A stretch of 8,515 nucleotides of DNA, taken from assembly GCA_016867055.1 (NCBI GenBank), contig VGKN01000048.1:1-8515 (forward strand). Reading direction: 5' to 3'. Shown piece by piece: positions 191-8,515 of the stretch. The notes under the pieces were generated by a model that was given only the letters and a program-made list of their open reading frames with translations, searched no databases and was not told the DNA's origin. A program made the position numbers and the translations under genes. This DNA comes from Candidatus Omnitrophota bacterium. GTDB taxonomy: Bacteria > Omnitrophota > Koll11 > VGKN01. Numbering within the stretch: the stretch's first letter is position 1; each line of letters starts with the position of its first letter.

Positions 191-254
191 TTCCAGGGAC
201 ACAATACCCAATTGAATTCTATAATTGGATGTAGAAAATTAAGTATTGTGTCCC
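191..254. repeat. Inverted repeat gggacacaatac / gtattgtgtccc
   Basis: The segment gggacacaatacccaatt (196-213) is the reverse complement, at 16 of 18 positions, of aattaagtattgtgtccc (237-254). The inner 12 bases (196-207 and 243-254) are perfect. The 23 bases between could form a hairpin loop. From general experience, 'gtattgtgtcccc' motifs of this kind occur beside IS200-like/REP-associated transposase genes in many environmental bacteria. No transposase gene is present here, so the arms would be orphan ends. Confidence 0.6.
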
Positions 255-297
255 CAAATTTTCTTAGAAAATTAAGTATTGTGTCCCCAAATTTTCT
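232..297. repeat. Two perfect tandem 33-bp stem-loop units
   Basis: Bases 232-264 and 265-297 are identical 33-mers lying directly end to end. Each unit contains its own inverted repeat: AGAAAATT (233-240) and AATTTTCT (257-264) in the first copy, at the same offsets in the second. The 16-base loop carries gtattgtgtcccc. The array is therefore two tandem potential hairpins. Zero divergence between the copies suggests recent duplication by slippage or by a REP-type process. Confidence 0.85.
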
Positions 298-334
298 GTC
301 CCCAAATTTTCATACCCAAATTTTCCAAATTTTC
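255..334. repeat. Five copies of the 9-mer caaattttc
   Basis: The 9-mer caaattttc occurs at 255-263, 288-296, 303-311, 317-325 and 326-334. The first two lie inside the 33-bp units, the third follows a shortened 'gtcc', and the last two are directly adjacent. The pattern reads as a progressively shortened and decayed continuation of the 33-bp array. A further 'agtgtccct' at 356-364 may be a last remnant. The A/T-rich stretch up to 393 holds nothing else I can identify. Confidence 0.75.
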
Positions 335-393: not shown

Positions 394-948
394 ATGGATT
401 TTGTTGTCGGCATAGATGTTGGTGGTTATAAAAAGGGTTTTCACGGAGCAATTCTGGATTTAAAGAATAATAGTTTCTCAGGATTATTTCACGAGATTGA
501 AGCAGAGGCGGTATTAGAGCAGCTCAAGGATATTCCTGGCGTATGTAGAGCAATTGCAATTGATTGCCCTCCAAAAGCATATATCAAGGGTCCCAAAACA
601 AGGTTGGCAGAGAGAGAATTAGTTCGGCTTGGTTACCGCGTACAGTTTGTATCAAGGAATGGAAAAGCGTCGGAATGGATGCTTAATGGTAGCAATCTTT
701 GGATATTATTGAAAAATTATATGTCAGATGTTGAAATTATTGAAACATTCCCCACTGCCTTAAGCGATAAACTGTCCGATATTGAAATTAACATTCCATT
801 GAAGTTACTCGCAGGTAAAGATAAACGCAAGTTTTATGGAGACTATATTGATGCGTGTTTATGTGCTATAGCAGCAAAGAAGTTTTTACAGGGAAAATCT
901 ACAGAAATAGGCAAGGGCGATGAGCTGGGGCCAATACATATTCTTTAG
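394..948 (+). CDS. DUF429 family protein (predicted RNase H-like fold)
   Basis: This 184-residue protein has the DUF429 layout. The glycine-rich start GIDVGGYKKGF (6-16) carries an acidic D8. It is followed by AIDCPP (55-60), the R/ER element 70-80 (R70, R74, R78), ETFPTA (117-122), the helix GDYIDACLCAIAAKKF (149-164), and a final GDELGPIHIL (175-184). The acidic residues D8, D57, E117 and D150/D153 are where an RNase H-like site would be expected. DUF429 members are called predicted nucleases in the literature, but their substrate is generally unknown and I assign none. The start ATG has only a weak purine stretch upstream (ctaagtaat). The gene sits between the 33-bp repeat cluster and a decayed copy of the same motif, so it may have travelled with them. 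It converges on the minus-strand gene with a 32-base gap. Confidence 0.82.
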   Translation: MDFVVGIDVGGYKKGFHGAILDLKNNSFSGLFHEIEAEAVLEQLKDIPGVCRAIAIDCPPKAYIKGPKTRLAERELVRLGYRVQFVSRNGKASEWMLNGSNLWILLKNYMSDVEIIETFPTALSDKLSDIEINIPLKLLAGKDKRKFYGDYIDACLCAIAAKKFLQGKSTEIGKGDELGPIHIL

Positions 949-1725: not shown

Positions 1726-1754
1726 TTGACCAAAAGTATTTTTCATGATATTAT
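1726..1754 (+). promoter_or_regulatory. Candidate sigma70-type promoter for the CBM9-like gene
   Basis: TTGACC (1726-1731) and TATTAT (1749-1754) are separated by 17 bases, giving one mismatch in each hexamer. The predicted transcription start is near 1761, directly before the GTG at 1762. The element overlaps the upstream TTG (1726) that would otherwise be the longest start of the gene, which speaks against that TTG. A/T-rich DNA can produce such matches by chance. Confidence 0.45.
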
Positions 1755-1761
1755 TTGCCTC

Positions 1762-2922
1762 GTGTATAAGATAAAAAGTGTCAAAAATAAAATACTTTTG
1801 GTTATTTTTTTCGTCCCGATAACAGTTTATCATACTGCTTATGCGCATCTTTGCGATAATGTCTTCCGCCAGAAAGATAAACTTATCGTAAAGCCTGAAA
1901 CCTACAACATTACAGTGAAGGATAAAGCCACGTTTAAGATTTTTCTGCAGAACAATATGGACAGGGGGATTGCGGAGATAAGCCTTATTGCGGAAAGCCC
2001 TGCCTTTGATTTTGAAATAAACCCTAAAAAGATGCCACTTCCAAAAGACCAGAGGGCTTTCTTTCAGGTTAGTATGACGCCAAAATCAACAACAAGAACA
2101 GGTAATTACACGATTAACTTCCGGCTTGTAGGAGGAGGCAAGCAGTTTAAGAGTTTTAATCTGAGCATGGGTAAAGAGGCCGTGACGCAGAAAGCCGATG
2201 TAGAAACAGAAAGCGACGAAAAAAAGGTTAAAGAGACAGAAACAACAAAACCAAAGAAATATAAATCAGAGATAAGGCTTATTACGCCAGAGTCAGAGAT
2301 AGATAAACAAGAACCTCAAACAGAATTAACCGAACCCAGAGAAGAAGAAACAAAAACCCAAAAAATCAAATTCTTTCCTCCAGCACCTGTTATGGACGGC
2401 GCCTTGGATGATGAGCTCTGGAAGACCGCAAAGGTGCTTTCCAATTTTTCCTCTCCCCAAAAAGGCACGGCTTGGCATGAGACCATAATCCTTGTTTCTT
2501 GCGATACGGCACATATGTATCTTGGAATCTACTGCGAGACAGATAAAAGTCAAGACTTACCACGTGATGATACAATAGAGATAAAACTTGCGCGCAACAA
2601 GGAAGGTTGTCCTTATAGCGCTTTTCTGATTCCTGTTTCAGGCACACCCTCCTTTAAGAATGTTTCAACCGAAGGGACTGAGGTGCATCTAGAATCAAAA
2701 GACATAAAATATTGTGTTGTGGATAACGGCGAATTCTGGTCTGCTGAATTGGAGGTGCCGTTTTTTGTGCTTGGTTTTGAGTCAAGGGCTTACCAAGGAT
2801 ACTGGTATATGAGGATTACAAGGAATAAATCAGGCAGAGAGCCCCAGATGAGTTTTTGGGCGCAAGATGAATCCGGCTATAATGATGAAAAGGGATTTGG
2901 AAAGGTACTAATTAACCCATAA
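1762..2922 (+). CDS. Exported Ig-like plus CBM9/DOMON-like domain protein
   Basis: I chose GTG 1762 (386 residues). The frame opens 12 codons earlier at TTG 1726, but that codon overlaps a promoter-like element and the extra residues spoil the signal peptide. Neither start has a good ribosome site. Residues 1-28 form a Sec signal (KIKSVKNK, then ILLVIFFVPITVY, cleavage after AYA). Residues about 38-137 look like an Ig-like/NEW3-type beta-sandwich (IVKPETYNITVKDKATFKIFL; TGNYTINFRL). Residues 138-200 are a Lys/Glu/Thr-rich linker. Residues 201-386 match CBM9-like/DOMON proteins: MDGALDDELWKTA (211-223), MYLGIYC, DDTIEIKL (269-276), WSAELEVPF (326-334), and MRITRNKSG with SFWAQDESG near the end. 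Such domains bind sugars or heme, or dock in surface complexes. No catalytic domain is present, so I infer a binding or scaffolding role in the periplasm or at the surface. It is transcribed divergently from the beta-barrel gene. Confidence 0.78.
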   Translation: MYKIKSVKNKILLVIFFVPITVYHTAYAHLCDNVFRQKDKLIVKPETYNITVKDKATFKIFLQNNMDRGIAEISLIAESPAFDFEINPKKMPLPKDQRAFFQVSMTPKSTTRTGNYTINFRLVGGGKQFKSFNLSMGKEAVTQKADVETESDEKKVKETETTKPKKYKSEIRLITPESEIDKQEPQTELTEPREEETKTQKIKFFPPAPVMDGALDDELWKTAKVLSNFSSPQKGTAWHETIILVSCDTAHMYLGIYCETDKSQDLPRDDTIEIKLARNKEGCPYSAFLIPVSGTPSFKNVSTEGTEVHLESKDIKYCVVDNGEFWSAELEVPFFVLGFESRAYQGYWYMRITRNKSGREPQMSFWAQDESGYNDEKGFGKVLINP

Positions 2923-2955: not shown

Positions 2956-3015
2956 GCCACGTCTGTACCTCGACAGGCTCGGTATGGTGAGCGAATTCGA
3001 ACCATAAAGGCGTGG
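2956..3015. repeat. 60-bp palindromic intergenic repeat, copy 1
   Basis: This unit runs from gccacg to cgtgg. It shares 51 of 60 positions with the copy at 3069-3128, without gaps. Its ends are complementary (CCACG with CGTGG) and it contains an inner inverted pair, ATGGT (2984-2988) and ACCAT (3000-3004). The inner 'ctcgacaggctcgg...gagcgaattcgaaccat' belongs to a type of intergenic repeat familiar from many environmental bacterial genomes; that recognition is from memory. Confidence 0.8.
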
Positions 3016-3068
3016 ATGAATAGTATCTGGCTCAGGGTTCAGCTTTTTGGGACCCTGTAGAAAAAGAG

Positions 3069-3128
3069 GCCACGGCTGTCCCTCGTTAAGCTCGGGATGG
3101 TGAGCGAAGTCGAACCATAACGCCGTGG
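3069..3128. repeat. 60-bp palindromic intergenic repeat, copy 2
   Basis: This unit is in the same orientation as copy 1, 53 bases downstream of its end. Here the terminal arms are a perfect 7-bp pair: CCACGGC (3070-3076) and GCCGTGG (3122-3128). Of the nine differences from copy 1, those at the arms (T to G on one side, A/G to C on the other) make the stem better paired, as expected if the fold matters. The unit may stabilise or attenuate transcripts entering the operon behind it. Confidence 0.8.
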
Positions 3129-3228
3129 AGCTTCACAGTTTCTGATGTTTAAAGTTGGGATAATGTTAAGTTACATTAGCGTTATACGGTAATAAACTCA
3201 CGTATTTAGGGCTGTTCTCTAACGAGGC

Positions 3229-3240: not shown

Positions 3241-3798
3241 TTGGCACAAAGGGGTCTTATATTTTTTTGTACGGTATCATTTTTTTTATTCAGTGCCATT
3301 TGCTATGTCTATGCGGCGCAGGAAGCCCCTGTAAGTTTAGATTACCCGTCTTTTGAGGGGGATTTTTATGCCTCAGGTAAGGTTTTCTTTCCGCCTTCAA
3401 GCGTCAAATCAGAGCGAAATATAATAGTTGGACTTACAGATACCTCTTCAGAGATACCGTCAAAAATCACTATCCTTTCAAAATGGCCGAATGGTTCTAT
3501 CCAGAGTGCAAATATAATATTTGCCGCCAATTCAGCTTCTAAAAAAAAATATGTAGTTATTTTCGGAGAGGATGTTTTAAGGAAGAAAAGTTTTACCCAG
3601 CCAGCAGTGCTTCCCACTGTATCATTTTCTACTGCAGGAGCTCCTAAGACTGTTGAGGAAATAGATTTAAATGTGGGGCAGATTAATGTAAGGGTGGATA
3701 AAAGCCCGGATTTATTTTATTATTGGCATATTGTGCCTGTTATGATTCTTATCGGCATTGCATACTACCGTAGCCAGAGGCTAAATAAAGACAGATGA
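3241..3798 (+). CDS. Exported, C-terminally anchored protein with RIFT-barrel-like domain
   Basis: This 185-residue protein starts at TTG behind a strong AAGGAG. Residues 1-25 are a Sec signal peptide (hydrophobic LIFFCTVSFFLFSAI, cleavage likely after YVYA). Residues 157-175 form a single membrane helix (LFYYWHIVPVMILIGIAYY) followed by a basic tail, so the middle should face the periplasm. That middle is beta-rich, and its stretch IPSKITILSKWPNGSIQSANIIFAA (72-96 region) with YVVIFG resembles the N-terminal RIFT-barrel of PcRGLX/YetA-type proteins, where 'WP.GS..' is conserved. None of the catalytic parts of those lyases are present. No cysteines remain in the mature domain, so it binds no Fe-S cluster or c-type heme itself. 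The stop overlaps the next gene's start (ATGA), implying translational coupling and a joint role with the polyferredoxin. The precise function is unknown. Confidence 0.75.
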   Translation: MAQRGLIFFCTVSFFLFSAICYVYAAQEAPVSLDYPSFEGDFYASGKVFFPPSSVKSERNIIVGLTDTSSEIPSKITILSKWPNGSIQSANIIFAANSASKKKYVVIFGEDVLRKKSFTQPAVLPTVSFSTAGAPKTVEEIDLNVGQINVRVDKSPDLFYYWHIVPVMILIGIAYYRSQRLNKDR

Positions 3799-4844
3799 GA
3801 TTTAGAAGGATATCCATTGTAAGGAGAATTGCCCAGGTAATATTTCTTATCCTCATTATTTACGGAGGATATCTCTTTAAGGCAAATATTGAAACTGTCA
3901 AATCTGATGTATCGCAGGCTAAACCCAAAACTTTTTTTCCTGTCCTTAAGGCACCAAAGGGTAGTCTGTCAGCCGGGCAGTTTAAAAAGGGGGATATACT
4001 CTGGCCCTCAGGCGATACCCCAGTTTTTGAGAATTTTCCACCAAGCCTTATATGCAGGTTTAATCCGAAGGGTGGTATGTTTAAGGCGTGCATTGTCCAT
4101 CTGGTATCAGAGAACCTTACTTGGCGCACCAATATAAAGTACCTGTTACCGCATATTAGCCTTTTTATATTGCTTTGTTTTTTGCTGGGCAGGATGTGGT
4201 GCGGCTGGGTATGTCCCATAGGAAGCATGGGTGATTTTTTGTCATGGGTCAGGCGAAAGATGGACGTGCCTGTCAAAAGGTTTTCTGCCCTGATGCACAA
4301 TATTCTGCGTAGTTCATCTTACGGCCTGATGGCTAGCACCTTTTTTATATCGGGATTTATAGGGATACCGAATTTTACCCGCTTTCAATGCTATTGGTTT
4401 TTACCTTATTGTCAGGTATGCCCTGCGAGGCTATTATGCCCCTTGTTCGGATTTATAAGCCCCACCTGGAAGGATTTTTCTACTGCGGTCTCCACAATGT
4501 TCAGTATCCTTGCCTGGTTATCTTTAGGAGTTTTTATAGTGGCGTTTTACTGGGGAAGAAGGCTGTGGTGTTATCTGTGCCCGATTGGGCTTATGAATTC
4601 GTGGTTTAACAAGGGCGCAGGACTTGAATTAAAAAAAGTTGCACTTAAATGCAATAAGTGCGGCTCCTGTAGTGATGCTTGCCCTATGGGGCTTTCTGAA
4701 ATGTACGAGGCGGATAAAGACACAATTTACAATAATGAATACTGCATTATGTGTATACGCTGTGTGGATATATGCCCGAGGGATAACTGCCTGTCAGTTA
4801 ATTTTTTCGGTAAGAGAATAATTGCCTCAAAGTATCAAAAGTAA
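3795..4844 (+). CDS. NapH/CcoG-type membrane polyferredoxin
   Basis: This 349-residue integral membrane protein begins inside the stop of the previous gene (ATGA, 3795-3798). TM1 is at 11-28. A roughly 85-residue loop with C87 and C99 follows, then further hydrophobic segments near 116-133, 173-192 and 232-253. It carries the family's paired motifs WCGWVCP (C136, C140) and WCYLCP (C259, C262), plus an extra cysteine cluster at C199, C206, C209 and C215. The C-terminus has two ferredoxin motifs: C286-C289-C292-C296P and C317-C320-C323-C327P. Relatives include NapH, NosR, CcoG and RdxA, which pass electrons between quinol and Fe-S or redox partners. Topology suggests both [4Fe-4S] clusters are cytoplasmic. 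With an ATP-dependent reductase next in the operon, I infer that it feeds electrons to that system. It is not napH itself, since no Nap genes are nearby. Confidence 0.87.
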   Translation: MRFRRISIVRRIAQVIFLILIIYGGYLFKANIETVKSDVSQAKPKTFFPVLKAPKGSLSAGQFKKGDILWPSGDTPVFENFPPSLICRFNPKGGMFKACIVHLVSENLTWRTNIKYLLPHISLFILLCFLLGRMWCGWVCPIGSMGDFLSWVRRKMDVPVKRFSALMHNILRSSSYGLMASTFFISGFIGIPNFTRFQCYWFLPYCQVCPARLLCPLFGFISPTWKDFSTAVSTMFSILAWLSLGVFIVAFYWGRRLWCYLCPIGLMNSWFNKGAGLELKKVALKCNKCGSCSDACPMGLSEMYEADKDTIYNNEYCIMCIRCVDICPRDNCLSVNFFGKRIIASKYQK

Positions 4845-4855
4845 AGAACCCGATT

Positions 4856-6118
4856 ATGCCGATTAGAAAAGACCAATTAATGAAAGAGGTATATTTAAAG
4901 GCGATAAGAACTAATTTAATGCACTTAGATATGCCCCGTATTTCTGATATGGCTGAGGAAGTAAAGAAATATATGGAACACTCACCCTTAAAAAATTCTC
5001 ACTTCTTTTACGAGATTATTCTTAACAGCAATCACCGCCACAGTAAAAAGGGTTTTAAAAAGCCTGTTGTCGGGTATTTCTGTAATCTTATTCCTGAAGA
5101 GATTATTTATGCCGCAGGCTGCCTTCCTGTGCGGCTGTGCAGCCAGAACGATACTTACGCAAAGATAGGAGAGGAATTTTTTCCTGCGGATATGTGCCCT
5201 GTAATAAAATCGGCGTGTGGGGCTATTTCCACCAGGCACTATGAAAATATAGATTTTGTGATTGTGCCTGCTGCCTGTGACGGAAAGACGAAGTTAGCAG
5301 AGATGCTGGTGCCTTTTAAAGAGATTTATTTTCTGGATTTGCCTAAGGACAGCGATTATTTAAAAAGCGCAGGAATCTGGACAGGGGAATATGCCAAATT
5401 TCTTGGGTTTATCAAAAACAGGTATGATAGAAGAATAACCCGAAAAGACCTTATAGATGCCTGCACCCTTACAAACAGAAGGACGAATATATTTAGAGAG
5501 ATTTATGAGTTCAGGGCGCTTCATCCGGGCATTATAAACGCCTTTGATTATTTTACAATGACCAGCACCTCTTTTATTTCTGATGCAGGCTTCTGGAGCG
5601 AACATTCCGAAAAACTGTATGATGAGGCAAAAAAACTATCAAGTCATAACCACAGTGATTTTAAAGGAAAAAGGATTCTTTTAAGCGGCTCTTCAATTAT
5701 ATTCCCAAATTACAAAGTCCTTGATGTACTTGATGAACTGGGATGTGATATAGGGGGAGATACCCAGTGCTCGGCCTATGGTAGGTTATACGACCCGGTT
5801 GAGATAGACGAGGAAACAGAGGAAGGCATTTTAAGAGCCCTTTCGCTGAAATATGTCGCCGCAAGTATGTGTCCGTGTTTCTTAGGGATAGATAAATTCA
5901 TCGACCGAATTTTGGACTTGATAGAGACATATAAATTTGATGGGGTTATCTATAATAACCTAAGACTCTGTCAGGTGTTTGAGATACAAGGTTCTTTATT
6001 AAAACACGTGCTGAGGGAAAAGGAAATACCCTTTCTTTTTATAAAGACGGATTTGGGTAAAGAAGACACAGGTCAGCTAAAGACAAGGATAGAGGCCTTT
6101 CTTGAAATCTTAAAATAA
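4856..6118 (+). CDS. 2-hydroxyacyl-CoA dehydratase family protein, double-cubane-like reductase
   Basis: This 420-residue protein belongs to the HgdB/BcrB/BcrC family. Family landmarks are GYFCNLIPEEIIYAAGCLPVRL (73-94 region), DMCPVIKSACG (112-122), VPAACDGKTK (137-146), and the C-terminal KFDGVIYNNLRLCQ (360-373) with DTGQLKTRIEAFLEIL (404-419). Twelve cysteines are present; C76, C114, C141, C339, C341 and C372 fall at or near places where the family binds clusters. True dehydratases and benzoyl-CoA reductases have two catalytic subunits encoded side by side. Here there is one, directly followed by the activator, as in the YjiM/YjiL group, whose studied member carries an [Fe8S9] double cubane and reduces small molecules such as acetylene. 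I therefore favour a double-cubane-type protein, but the substrate is unknown. It starts 11 bases after the polyferredoxin stop with only a weak ribosome site; an in-frame ATG at 4880 is possible. Confidence 0.83.
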   Translation: MPIRKDQLMKEVYLKAIRTNLMHLDMPRISDMAEEVKKYMEHSPLKNSHFFYEIILNSNHRHSKKGFKKPVVGYFCNLIPEEIIYAAGCLPVRLCSQNDTYAKIGEEFFPADMCPVIKSACGAISTRHYENIDFVIVPAACDGKTKLAEMLVPFKEIYFLDLPKDSDYLKSAGIWTGEYAKFLGFIKNRYDRRITRKDLIDACTLTNRRTNIFREIYEFRALHPGIINAFDYFTMTSTSFISDAGFWSEHSEKLYDEAKKLSSHNHSDFKGKRILLSGSSIIFPNYKVLDVLDELGCDIGGDTQCSAYGRLYDPVEIDEETEEGILRALSLKYVAASMCPCFLGIDKFIDRILDLIETYKFDGVIYNNLRLCQVFEIQGSLLKHVLREKEIPFLFIKTDLGKEDTGQLKTRIEAFLEILK

Positions 6119-6125
6119 AACGCTT

Positions 6126-6926
6126 ATGGCAAACAAGGCAAAGATAACCGCAGGAATTGACATAGGCTCGGTTGCCACAAAGTGCGTCTTGGTGAAAGAG
6201 GCAAGGGTTATTGCCTCAAATCTGGGTAAGACAGGTTTTGACGTGGAAAAATCTACCATAGATATCTTTTATGATACACTAAAAAAGGCAAAAATTTCTA
6301 AGTCTAAAATCGGAACAGTTGTTTCTACCGGTTATGGCCGCAGGACATTTAAAGAGGCGGACAGGACCATAACAGAGGTATCAGCAGCAGGCTACGGCGC
6401 CTATATCCTTACAGGAAGGAAGAATTGCCTTGTGATAGATGTAGGCGGACAGGATACCAAGATAATTAATATTAATAAGACGGGACGGATTACGGATTTT
6501 CTGATGAATGACAAATGCGCTGCTGGAACAGGGCGTTTCCTTGAGTTGATGGTAGATGTGCTGGAGACGGACTTAGAGGGTCTTTCAAACCTTGCGCTAA
6601 AATCCAGAAAACCGGTAACCATTAACTCTACCTGTAGTGTTTTTGCCGAAAGCGAAGCAGTATCCCTTATAGCCCACTCCGTAAAAAGGGAGGATATAGC
6701 AGCTGGCCTGTTTGATGCGATAGCCACAAGGATTAATAATATGATAAAACAGGCACACTCCTCTAACCCCATAGTATTCTCAGGCGGTGGAGCAAAAAGC
6801 TCCGCCTTAAAAAAATCGCTTGAAAGAATAACTAAAAGAGAAATTACCATTCTTGATAATCCGCAGTTCGTGGCAGCCTATGGTGCAGCATTATTAGACT
6901 CAGGTTCTTTACCCCGCACCTCGTAA
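6126..6926 (+). CDS. BcrA/D-BadF/G-type ATPase, activator of the reductase
   Basis: This 266-residue protein is a full-length 2-hydroxyacyl-CoA dehydratase activase/CoA-enzyme activator of the actin-like ATPase fold. It shows phosphate-1 GIDIGSVATKC (10-20), STGYGRRTF (67-75), phosphate-2 VIDVGGQDTK (103-112), and the adenosine motif VFSGGGAKS (217-225). Two cysteines, C131 in NDKCAAGTGRFLE and C170 in NSTCSVFAESE, would supply one ligand pair each from two subunits to bridge a single [4Fe-4S] cluster in the homodimer. In this family ATP hydrolysis drives a conformational change that pushes one electron at very low potential into the partner. The partner is almost certainly the gene seven bases upstream. 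No separate ribosome site is obvious, which fits coupling. YjiL of E. coli is the nearest model I recall. Confidence 0.92.
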   Translation: MANKAKITAGIDIGSVATKCVLVKEARVIASNLGKTGFDVEKSTIDIFYDTLKKAKISKSKIGTVVSTGYGRRTFKEADRTITEVSAAGYGAYILTGRKNCLVIDVGGQDTKIININKTGRITDFLMNDKCAAGTGRFLELMVDVLETDLEGLSNLALKSRKPVTINSTCSVFAESEAVSLIAHSVKREDIAAGLFDAIATRINNMIKQAHSSNPIVFSGGGAKSSALKKSLERITKREITILDNPQFVAAYGAALLDSGSLPRTS

Positions 6927-7298: not shown

Positions 7299-8515
7299 AT
7301 GATAGATGAGGATAAAACAAGGGAGCCACTTATAGGCGTGTTAAGAGAAAGCGAGAGTCTTTTAGAGTTAGTTTTTGATACAGAACCAGAGTGCGTAAAA
7401 TTACTTGCCTCTGATGGCACCATATTAAAAATGAATAAGGCTGGGCTGGCAATGCTTGAGGTTGATTCTCCTGAGCAGGTTATCGGAAAATGCATATACT
7501 CTTTTATAGCTCCAGAGTATATCGGAGCCTTCAAAGCCTTGGTGGAAGATGTATTCCAGGGCAACTCTGGAGTATTAGAGTTTGAGATAGTAGGTTTTAA
7601 GGGCACACGGCGCTTCCTTGAAACCCATGTAGTTCCATTTCGTAGTAATAATAAAACCCTTGCTTTACTTGCAATAACCCGCGATATTACTGAGCGTAAA
7701 ATATCCGAGCGACGTATAGCCAGGATAAATGAGTGCTTCTTGAATCTAAAGTTTGACCCTGTAAAGAATATTAATAGCCTGGTTTGCCTGTGCGGAGAAA
7801 TTTTAAGAGCAGATTGCGCCCTGTATAATAGGATTGATAATAATATGATTTATTCTATAGGGATGTGGAATGTCCCCCCAGATTTTAAAACCGAAGGAAA
7901 TGCAGAAGGCAAGATTTGTAATGATGTTATTAAGCAAAAGGCAAAGGGCGTTACGGTTATTACCAATTTAGACTCCAGCCCCTACGCTTATACGGATGCC
8001 AATATATCAAAATATAATCTGAAGACCTATATTGGATATCCTGTCAGATTTGGCAACAAAGCAGTTGGTATTTTATGTGCGCTGTATAAACAGAATTATA
8101 GTATCAGTAAGGAGGATGAGAGAATATTGGGCATACTCTCCTCGGCTATAGGCATAGAGGAGGAGCGTCTGGAAAAGGCAAGGGCGTTAAAGCAACGACT
8201 TGAGTTTGAGAGATTTATAACAACTATACTGACAGAGTTTATTAATATTAAGATAGATGAGATTGACCAGGCTATAAATACTGCACTAAAGAAAATAGGT
8301 GAGTTTGTTGGAGTTGACAGGAGTTATGTTTTTATTGCTCGCGATAACCTTACAAGGGCAGACAATACGCATGAGTGGTGCCGCGAGGGAATCAAATCGT
8401 ATATAAATAAACTTCAGGACTTAAGGGTGGAAGAGTTCCCATGGTTTACCCAGAAGATGAAGAATTTAGAAACCATCTACATTCCCAGCGTGGATATGCT
8501 CCCAGATGAAACTAG
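7299..8515 (+). CDS. PAS-GAF-GAF sensor protein, 3' end beyond window
   Basis: The frame from ATG 7299 is open to the window edge (405 codons). An in-frame TAG at 7269 limits the start, and the ribosome site is weak. Residues about 16-130 are a PAS domain (LLASDGTILKMNKAGLAML; FRSNNKTLALLAITRDITERK, the usual PAS end). Residues about 140-285 are a GAF domain (CGEILRADCALYNRID; LKTYIGYPVRFGNKAVGILCALY; then EDERILGILSSAIGIEEERL). A coiled-coil linker follows. From about 302 a second GAF begins, of the type with FINIKIDEIDQAINTAL, GEFVGVDRSYVFIA, THEWCREGI (357-365) and the PWF...IPSV...LP signature. No membrane helix or signal peptide is visible, so it is cytoplasmic. The output domain lies outside the window; a histidine kinase is most likely, a diguanylate cyclase possible. 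C163, C165 and C173 cluster in the first GAF. It may or may not regulate the neighbouring operon. Confidence 0.85.
   Translation, partial: MIDEDKTREPLIGVLRESESLLELVFDTEPECVKLLASDGTILKMNKAGLAMLEVDSPEQVIGKCIYSFIAPEYIGAFKALVEDVFQGNSGVLEFEIVGFKGTRRFLETHVVPFRSNNKTLALLAITRDITERKISERRIARINECFLNLKFDPVKNINSLVCLCGEILRADCALYNRIDNNMIYSIGMWNVPPDFKTEGNAEGKICNDVIKQKAKGVTVITNLDSSPYAYTDANISKYNLKTYIGYPVRFGNKAVGILCALYKQNYSISKEDERILGILSSAIGIEEERLEKARALKQRLEFERFITTILTEFINIKIDEIDQAINTALKKIGEFVGVDRSYVFIARDNLTRADNTHEWCREGIKSYINKLQDLRVEEFPWFTQKMKNLETIYIPSVDMLPDET

What the first reader, a model, noticed from the sequence alone, without database searches (positions are those of the whole stretch)
3241..6926. Operon joining a membrane polyferredoxin to a double-cubane-type ATP-dependent reductase
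Seen: four tightly spaced genes (ATGA overlap, then 11- and 7-base gaps) encoding an anchored periplasmic domain, a NapH/CcoG-like polyferredoxin, a single-subunit HgdB/YjiM-like protein and its BadF/G-type activator. Known: activators of this family take electrons from low-potential carriers such as ferredoxin or flavodoxin, and the physiological donor and substrate of the YjiM/YjiL (double-cubane) group are poorly defined. Inferred: here the donor would be a dedicated membrane module linking a quinol or periplasmic reductant to the reductase, possibly an undescribed pathway for reducing a small, hard-to-reduce molecule.
Basis: partly seen in the sequence, partly recalled or inferred. Interest (0 to 1): 0.72.

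Follow-up and report, generated by a model that had tools for sequence, protein, structure and literature searches.

The report
Membrane-linked ATP-driven double-cubane reductase module
A conserved set of five genes in uncultured bacteria ties an ATP-powered iron-sulfur reductase inside the cell to an iron-sulfur protein in the membrane and to exported proteins outside, which suggests a new way of moving high-energy electrons across the membrane, although its substrate is unknown.

Summary
The four genes are real. A fifth gene (1726-2922), an exported protein with an invariant HLCDNVFRQ motif at its predicted mature N-terminus, belongs to the module. In 35 genomes of the phylum of a named Omnitrophota relative, polyferredoxin and clade reductase occur in the same 14; all five proteins are found in 13, the fourteenth breaks at a contig end. 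In three the module is split over contigs, yet kept. The reductase has the six double-cubane cysteines, branches outside CoA-ester dehydratases and away from YjiM, and has no second subunit. Archaeal relatives sit behind a polyferredoxin, a DsbD-type protein, or both. The quinol-donor idea is not supported: the 14 genomes show no UbiA above cut-off, MqnA/D or cytochrome c assembly protein, but all have a POR-type gene. Best reading: ferredoxin feeds ATPase and double cubane, and the polyferredoxin exchanges these electrons with an extracytoplasmic partner, more likely outward; direction and substrate are inferred. No description found in the searches made. New variant of a known kind.

The parts
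1726..2922 (+). Fifth module gene ('up'): exported protein; ORF from TTG 1726, real start perhaps GTG 1762 (inference). N-terminal motif, Ig-like part, CBM9/DOMON-fold domain
   Evidence: Homologues beside or with the module in relatives; model and fold comparison. The model is poor overall (mean pLDDT 55, 5 sequences), usable only for the C-terminal domain
1846..1899 (+). Motif HLCDNVFRQ-x-[DN]-[KS]-LIVKPE directly after the predicted signal-peptidase site (read by eye), His first
   Evidence: HLCDNVFRQ and LIVKPE invariant in the 10 sequences; also in L005; a remnant in G036
2956..3129 (.). Two copies of a 61-nt repeat (2956-3016, 3069-3129) between 'up' and gene 1
   Evidence: 85% identity
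3241..3798 (+). Gene 1: signal peptide, RIFT-barrel-like domain (about 3310-3651), C-terminal helix, probably membrane anchor (3730-3792); no Cys or His invariant
3795..4844 (+). Gene 2: membrane polyferredoxin, NapH-like core
4053..4421 (+). Stretch holding the codons of the extra Cys quartet C87, C99, C206, C209 (probable ligands of a further cluster, probably on the outer side; inference)
   Evidence: All four in 42 of 42 clade rows (one row, P0121, repeats the window); outside the clade all four in 68 of 79, none in 5, partial in 6; absent from E. coli NapH
4650..4790 (+). C-terminal 2[4Fe-4S] ferredoxin domain, C286-C332
   Evidence: All nine Cys invariant in the clade; C286-C327 kept in NapH, C332 not
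4856..6118 (+). Gene 3: double-cubane-type reductase; six ligand Cys 76, 114, 141, 305, 339, 372 plus C341
   Evidence: trees
6126..6926 (+). Gene 4: BcrAD/HgdC-type ATPase activator; Cys131 and Cys170 are the expected cluster ligands
   Evidence: both Cys in 20 of 20 aligned activators

Best explanation
The five genes encode one membrane-linked double-cubane module. Shown from sequence: the reductase has the full double-cubane cysteine set, a cognate ATPase activator, and a polyferredoxin with extra conserved cysteines that occurs in the same genomes. Inferred: reduced cytoplasmic ferredoxin reduces the activator. ATP hydrolysis lifts the electrons into the [8Fe-9S] cluster. The cluster passes them to the ferredoxin domain of the polyferredoxin, which conducts them through the membrane clusters to the extra Cys quartet and on to an extracytoplasmic partner: the exported HLC-motif/CBM9-fold protein, docked by the anchored RIFT-barrel protein, or something it binds. 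The archaeal counterparts would do the same with a DsbD-type carrier beside or instead of the polyferredoxin. On this reading the double cubane boosts electrons for export or for reductive activation of an exterior partner, rather than reducing a small cytoplasmic molecule.
For: Unit: same 14 of 35 genomes for polyferredoxin and clade reductase; HLC-type 'up' in 13 of the 14; gene 1 and activator found in all 14. Three genomes keep the parts on separate contigs: G005 and G012 gene1-polyFd apart from up-reductase-activator, G023 up-gene1-polyFd apart from reductase-activator. Double cubane: six Cys in all 40 aligned; 6eno has them, HadC and MbdN do not. Linkage to membrane carriers follows the tree: of 17 loci in the related branch 12 have polyFd immediately upstream and 8 have DsbD_2 upstream, 16 at least one; of the 63 other loci none, bar one 31-bit hit 0.8 kb off in L025, but 10 of the 63 have under 1 kb of upstream sequence. 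Eight DsbD_2 proteins, from L008, L009, L011, L016, L017, L027, L029 and others, exceed the Pfam cut-off. Of 30 archaeal polyFd loci nine have the reductase next door, 8 of the 9 with a DsbD_2 relative. DsbD_2 keeps Cys in two membrane segments. Small ferredoxins follow the archaeal activators, in line with ferredoxin as donor. Against quinol feeding. Precedent that a double cubane can be an electron-transfer cofactor: BzdN (PMC11971306, passages).
Against: No double-cubane protein is known to me to deliver electrons to a membrane protein. Topology of the polyferredoxin is inferred from NapH (recalled); the hydropathy script found only three clear helices, so the outer place of the quartet is not shown. 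Four archaeal loci have DsbD_2 but no polyFd match, and five polyFd relatives lack the quartet, so the outer cluster is not universal. The CBM9-fold domain of 'up' has no invariant Met or His for haem, and gene 1 has no invariant Cys or His; both folds also occur in carbohydrate-active proteins, so the exported pair may not be redox-active. G020 has a reductase of the same branch next to an activator and an exported CBM9 protein but no polyFd at E <= 1e-40. Lack of UbiA is not special to module genomes (31 of 35 lack it over cut-off; p 0.13).
Confidence: 0.48

Rival explanations
1. Inward donor: the polyferredoxin takes electrons from an extracytoplasmic or membrane reductant and hands them to the activator, and the reductase reduces a small, hard-to-reduce molecule in the cytoplasm.
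For: Activators take electrons from low-potential ferredoxins or flavodoxins (established knowledge); the polyferredoxin gene is directly upstream; [quoted passage not shown]
Against: No quinone or cytochrome c route detected in module genomes; a POR-type gene in all 14, so ferredoxin is available inside. Bringing electrons in works against an inside-negative membrane potential (general principle). Archaeal DsbD_2 partners are of a type recalled to export electrons.
Confidence: 0.27
2. Maturation machine: polyferredoxin and reductase keep a metal or thiol site of the exported protein (the HLC motif) reduced or help install it, as NapH/MauN and CcoG-type polyferredoxins serve exported or membrane metalloproteins (roles recalled).
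For: In G002 the N-terminal part of 'up' is 61% identical to the window, against 66% for the polyferredoxin and 52% for the reductase; the motif with a single Cys starts at the predicted mature N-terminus; DsbD_2 in archaea.
Against: No second metal ligand (Cys or His) is invariant in 'up' outside the motif; nothing shows that the motif binds metal; why a double cubane would be needed is unclear.
Confidence: 0.17
3. Neighbours without functional link, co-inherited as a block.
For: The genomes in which the full module was verified come from one phylum of MAGs; shared contig lengths suggest a few other labels.
Against: The set is kept on separate contigs in three genomes; a like pairing occurs in an archaeal branch and, in G028, with a second, distant reductase.
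Confidence: 0.04

Closest known systems
Double-cubane cluster protein (DCCP) and its reductase, Carboxydothermus hydrogenoformans (PDB 6eno, 7yyl; organism recalled and named in PMC7306483, passages)
   Same: Single-subunit HGD-D protein, six cluster Cys plus C341, cognate ATPase activator
   Different: Window protein is below the NCBIfam double_cubane cut-off (271 of 350 bits); separate branch; tied to membrane and exported proteins, not seen beside the 63 loci outside the branch (10 of them have little upstream sequence)
E. coli YjiM/YjiL
   Same: Single-subunit protein with the same seven Cys; activator beside it
   Different: YjiM lies in a separate 7-row clade; no polyferredoxin among its annotated neighbours in 12 kb
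Benzoyl-CoA reductase BzdN / 2-hydroxyisocaproyl-CoA dehydratase HadC
   Same: Same fold family; BzdN keeps the six Cys and is thought to use its double cubane for electron transfer or storage
   Different: Two-subunit enzymes; HadC lacks Cys at 76 and 305; very long branches outside the single-subunit proteins
NapH / MauN / CcoG membrane polyferredoxins
   Same: Fer4_5 plus C-terminal 2[4Fe-4S]; the NapH core Cys are kept
   Different: Far below the TIGR02163, NF007013 and CcoG cut-offs; additional Cys quartet absent in NapH; no NapG-type partner in the operon
ATP-driven methyl-coenzyme M reductase activation complex
   Same: ATP-linked system whose complex FeS clusters may route low-potential electrons to another site (PMC12176620, start of abstract and passages)
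   Different: L-cluster-like clusters and different proteins; soluble (recalled)

Membership tests
Double-cubane cluster protein family | Six Cys ligands of the [8Fe-9S] cluster (76, 114, 141, 305, 339, 372) | tested here: met
   39 of 39 relatives and the window; also 6eno, BzdN and YjiM; HadC lacks two, MbdN three. Ligand identity read from alignment, not structure
Double-cubane cluster protein family | Curated NCBIfam NF040772 cut-off (350 bits) | tested here: not met
   271.1 bits; so not filed as that equivalog
Double-cubane cluster protein family | Single subunit with cognate BcrAD-type ATPase | tested here: met
   one HGD-D match (E <= 0.001) in 11 of 14 module genomes; extras are a second, distant reductase (G028), a contig split (G034), a weak 7.8e-4 hit (G017)
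Double-cubane cluster protein family | [8Fe-9S] cluster by spectroscopy or crystal; ATP-dependent reduction | not testable with these tools
   Needs protein
2-hydroxyacyl-CoA dehydratase / class I benzoyl-CoA reductase | Two different HGD-D subunits | tested here: not met
   (relatives are MAGs of unstated completeness)
2-hydroxyacyl-CoA dehydratase / class I benzoyl-CoA reductase | Phylogenetic grouping with HadC, BzdN, MbdN | tested here: not met
   These three fall apart from the 116 other rows, support 99; the tool warns of long branches. In one search, without HadC and MbdN, BzdN's place is weak (85/27)
YjiM/YjiL group | Grouping with YjiM | tested here: not met
   YjiM in a separate 7-row clade (100/100)
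NapH/MauN quinol dehydrogenase ferredoxin subunit | Curated cut-offs (TIGR02163 213; NF007013 234) | tested here: not met
   73.4 and 76 bits
NapH/MauN quinol dehydrogenase ferredoxin subunit | Conserved core Cys pattern | tested here: met
   NapH Cys aligned at 136, 140, 259, 262 and 286-327
NapH/MauN quinol dehydrogenase ferredoxin subunit | Quinol available in the cell | tested here: not met
   UbiA over cut-off 0 of 14, MqnA/D 0 of 35; tested in relatives, which may be incomplete; the window's own genome is not held
CBM9 / ethylbenzene dehydrogenase gamma haem-b fold ('up' C-terminal domain) | Shared fold | tested here: met
CBM9 / ethylbenzene dehydrogenase gamma haem-b fold ('up' C-terminal domain) | Haem or sugar ligands | tested here: inconclusive
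   No invariant Met or His in that domain; no residue-level superposition available

The most novel reading that the evidence does not exclude
A double-cubane ATPase system used as a transmembrane electron booster: ATP hydrolysis at the activator drives very low-potential electrons out of the cytoplasm through a polyferredoxin (bacteria) or a polyferredoxin and/or DsbD-type carrier (archaea) to an exported acceptor, in bacteria without detectable quinone or c-cytochrome genes. A whole branch of double-cubane proteins would then be membrane-coupled electron exporters.
Probability: 0.3. Interest if true: 0.86.

Novelty: new variant of a known kind. Interest (0 to 1): 0.62.

Why it matters
The role of double-cubane proteins is still given as unknown in a 2025 paper (PMC11971306, passages). 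This module gives one branch a fixed set of partners, so donor, acceptor and direction become testable. If electrons go outward, it would be an ATP-powered way to place very low-potential electrons outside the cytoplasm of organisms whose relatives seem to lack quinones and c-type cytochromes.

Tried and rejected

Limits: the 35 genomes are MAGs or drafts of unstated completeness, so separate contigs could also come from assembly or binning. The DsbD_2 profile came from three archaeal sequences. Trees: one search used the window and 18 of the 39 aligned clade relatives, 11 of P0064-P0120, L006-L080 and four references, but not L001-L005, which I place in the clade by 43-51% identity; one search dropped five long rows (HadC, MbdN, P0080, P0081, P0084) and 32 locus rows and added YjiM. 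In one search sequences of 240 aa or less were left out. Only 30 of the archaeal polyFd matches became loci. Co-location is read only from shared contig lengths. My ORF caller takes the longest start, so most gene overlaps are artefacts, and it missed four genes in G037, found by tblastn.
Full report
Observation. All four genes are present as stated: gene 1 3241-3798, gene 2 3795-4844, gene 3 4856-6118, gene 4 6126-6926, with an ATGA overlap and gaps of 11 and 7 bases. Closest solved relatives of gene 3 are the chains of 7yyl and 6eno; of gene 4, MbdQ and the HAD activator.

Is it a unit? The phylum of genome G001 (record named Candidatus Omnitrophota) holds 35 genomes. Polyferredoxin at E <= 1e-40: 14 of 35. 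Reductase at E <= 1e-10: 15 of 35, the same 14 plus G020 with a 35% relative. 'Up' at E <= 1e-5: 20 of 35, but matches reaching the N-terminal HLC part strongly (E <= 1e-48) are in 13, all within the 14; the rest are C-terminal-domain matches and one 35-residue remnant in G036. The fourteenth, G001, has no 'up' match, and its module contig starts inside gene 1. Gene 1 and activator were found in all 14. In G005 and G012 gene1-polyFd lie on another contig than up-reductase-activator, and in G023 up-gene1-polyFd on another than reductase-activator. Keeping the set although split is the best evidence of joint function, with the caveat that these are draft genomes. Wider protein searches show the same longest-contig length for reductase and polyferredoxin in 16 cases by my reading, including an Eremiobacteraeota-labelled contig; this is suggestive only.

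What is the reductase? All 40 clade sequences (39 and the window) have the six double-cubane Cys plus C341. 6eno has all seven. BzdN, which carries a double cubane (PMC11971306, passages), lacks only C341. HadC lacks 76 and 305 (and 341), MbdN 76, 305 and 339 (and 341). In trees of 119 rows (quick) and 83 rows (careful; rows dropped are listed under Tried and rejected) the window clade is solid (19 rows, 100/100) and joins a Pacearchaeota protein and P0064-P0078 (28 rows, 100/99), then Bathyarchaeota/Hecatellales proteins (38 rows, 93/87). 6eno and YjiM are elsewhere; L009's place is weak (85/27), and BzdN, HadC and MbdN are very long branches. Eleven of 14 module genomes have one HGD-D match only.

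The branch is membrane-linked. Of 80 reductase loci, 12 have a polyferredoxin immediately upstream on the same strand (L001-L004, L006-L009, L011, L014, L018, L054) and eight a DsbD_2 protein upstream (L008, L009, L011, L016, L017, L018, L027, L029; in L016, L017, L027 and L029 immediately so). All lie in that branch, which I count as 17 loci including L009 and, by identity, L001-L005. Only L005 has neither, and its genome has the polyferredoxin elsewhere. The other 63 loci have none, bar one 31-bit hit in L025; 10 of the 63 have under 1 kb of sequence before the reductase, L071, the nearest to 6eno, among them. Pfam confirms DsbD_2 above cut-off in all nine proteins tested: the L009 one, L008, L011, L016, L017, L027, L029, L151 and L161. 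In 300 genomes of the phylum of G008, 23 have a polyferredoxin relative at E <= 1e-30. Of the 30 loci returned nine have the reductase next door, eight of these with DsbD_2 upstream. The DsbD_2 proteins keep Cys in two membrane segments. Small ferredoxins follow the archaeal activators in L008, L135 and L136. In G028 a second reductase also has a polyferredoxin-like gene close by; it groups with the rows that surround YjiM.

Polyferredoxin. Nineteen of 20 Cys are invariant in 42 clade rows, one of which (P0121) repeats the window. C87, C99, C206 and C209 behave as a set: outside the clade all four in 68 of 79, none in five, partial in six, four of these being short sequences of 246-257 aa. E. 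coli NapH has the core Cys but none of the four. I read them as ligands of one further cluster, probably on the outer side. The hydropathy script found only three clear helices, so topology rests on analogy with NapH (recalled).

Direction. UbiA exceeds its cut-off in 4 of 35 genomes, none of the 14 module genomes (one sub-cut-off hit in G022), though 14 of 14 control genomes ring; with 31 of 35 lacking it, this is not special to module genomes (p 0.13). MqnA/D: 0 of 35, controls 4 of 14. Cytochrome c assembly: 2 of 35, none of the 14, controls 9 of 14. POR_N: 34 of 35, all 14, controls 10 of 14. These organisms thus look like ferredoxin-based anaerobes without quinones or c-type cytochromes. 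Together with DsbD_2 in archaea and the membrane potential, this favours outward flow from ferredoxin via activator and double cubane to the polyferredoxin and an exterior partner. That a double cubane can serve electron transfer has a proposed precedent in BzdN. This part is inference; the inward model keeps about a quarter of the weight.

Novelty. Each part belongs to a known superfamily, but the combination, the membrane-linked branch and the exported partner were not found in print by the searches, which cover only the held open-licence papers and of which I saw listings and some passages. The key structure papers on double-cubane proteins were not held. Verdict: a real, conserved module that I found undescribed; new variant of a known kind, with a bolder possibility (ATP-driven electron export) that the evidence does not exclude.

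Noticed in passing
window 2956-3016 and 3069-3129: Two 61-nt copies (85% identical) of a repeat with short complementary ends (by eye) sit between 'up' and gene 1, where seven relatives have gaps of at most 18 bases; looks like a mobile REP-type element.
   Followed up: partly
window 196-312: 33-nt tandem copies of TAGAAAATTAAGTATTGTGTCCCCAAATTTTCT with inverted arms, possibly a transposon-related repeat.
   Followed up: no
L016, L017, L027, L029: Bathycorpusculum loci have DsbD_2 directly before the reductase and two activators, with no polyferredoxin match: the DsbD-type protein may replace it.
   Followed up: partly
L139 7909-10206 (G028 contig C215): A second, distant reductase beside a 128-aa protein with a hydrophobic stretch and a polyferredoxin-like gene, near SelB: possible independent recruitment.
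   Followed up: partly
L137 8949-12622 (G020): A reductase of the same branch and its activator follow a GxGYxYP protein that also carries a CBM9 domain; no polyferredoxin in that genome at E <= 1e-40.
   Followed up: no
L132 9992-10273 (G036): A short ORF holds the signal peptide and HLCDNVFRQADKLIVKPE motif and then unrelated sequence; no polyferredoxin or reductase match in this genome: remnant or assembly join.
   Followed up: partly
L008 10987-11223, L135 4327-4596, L136 7555-7827: Small ferredoxin genes follow the two activators in archaeal loci, possible dedicated donors.
   Followed up: partly
window 394-948, 981-1604, 7299-8513: Flanking genes: DUF429 match below cut-off; a minus-strand 207-aa protein that looks like a small outer-membrane beta-barrel (by eye); a PAS-GAF protein cut by the window end.
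   Followed up: no
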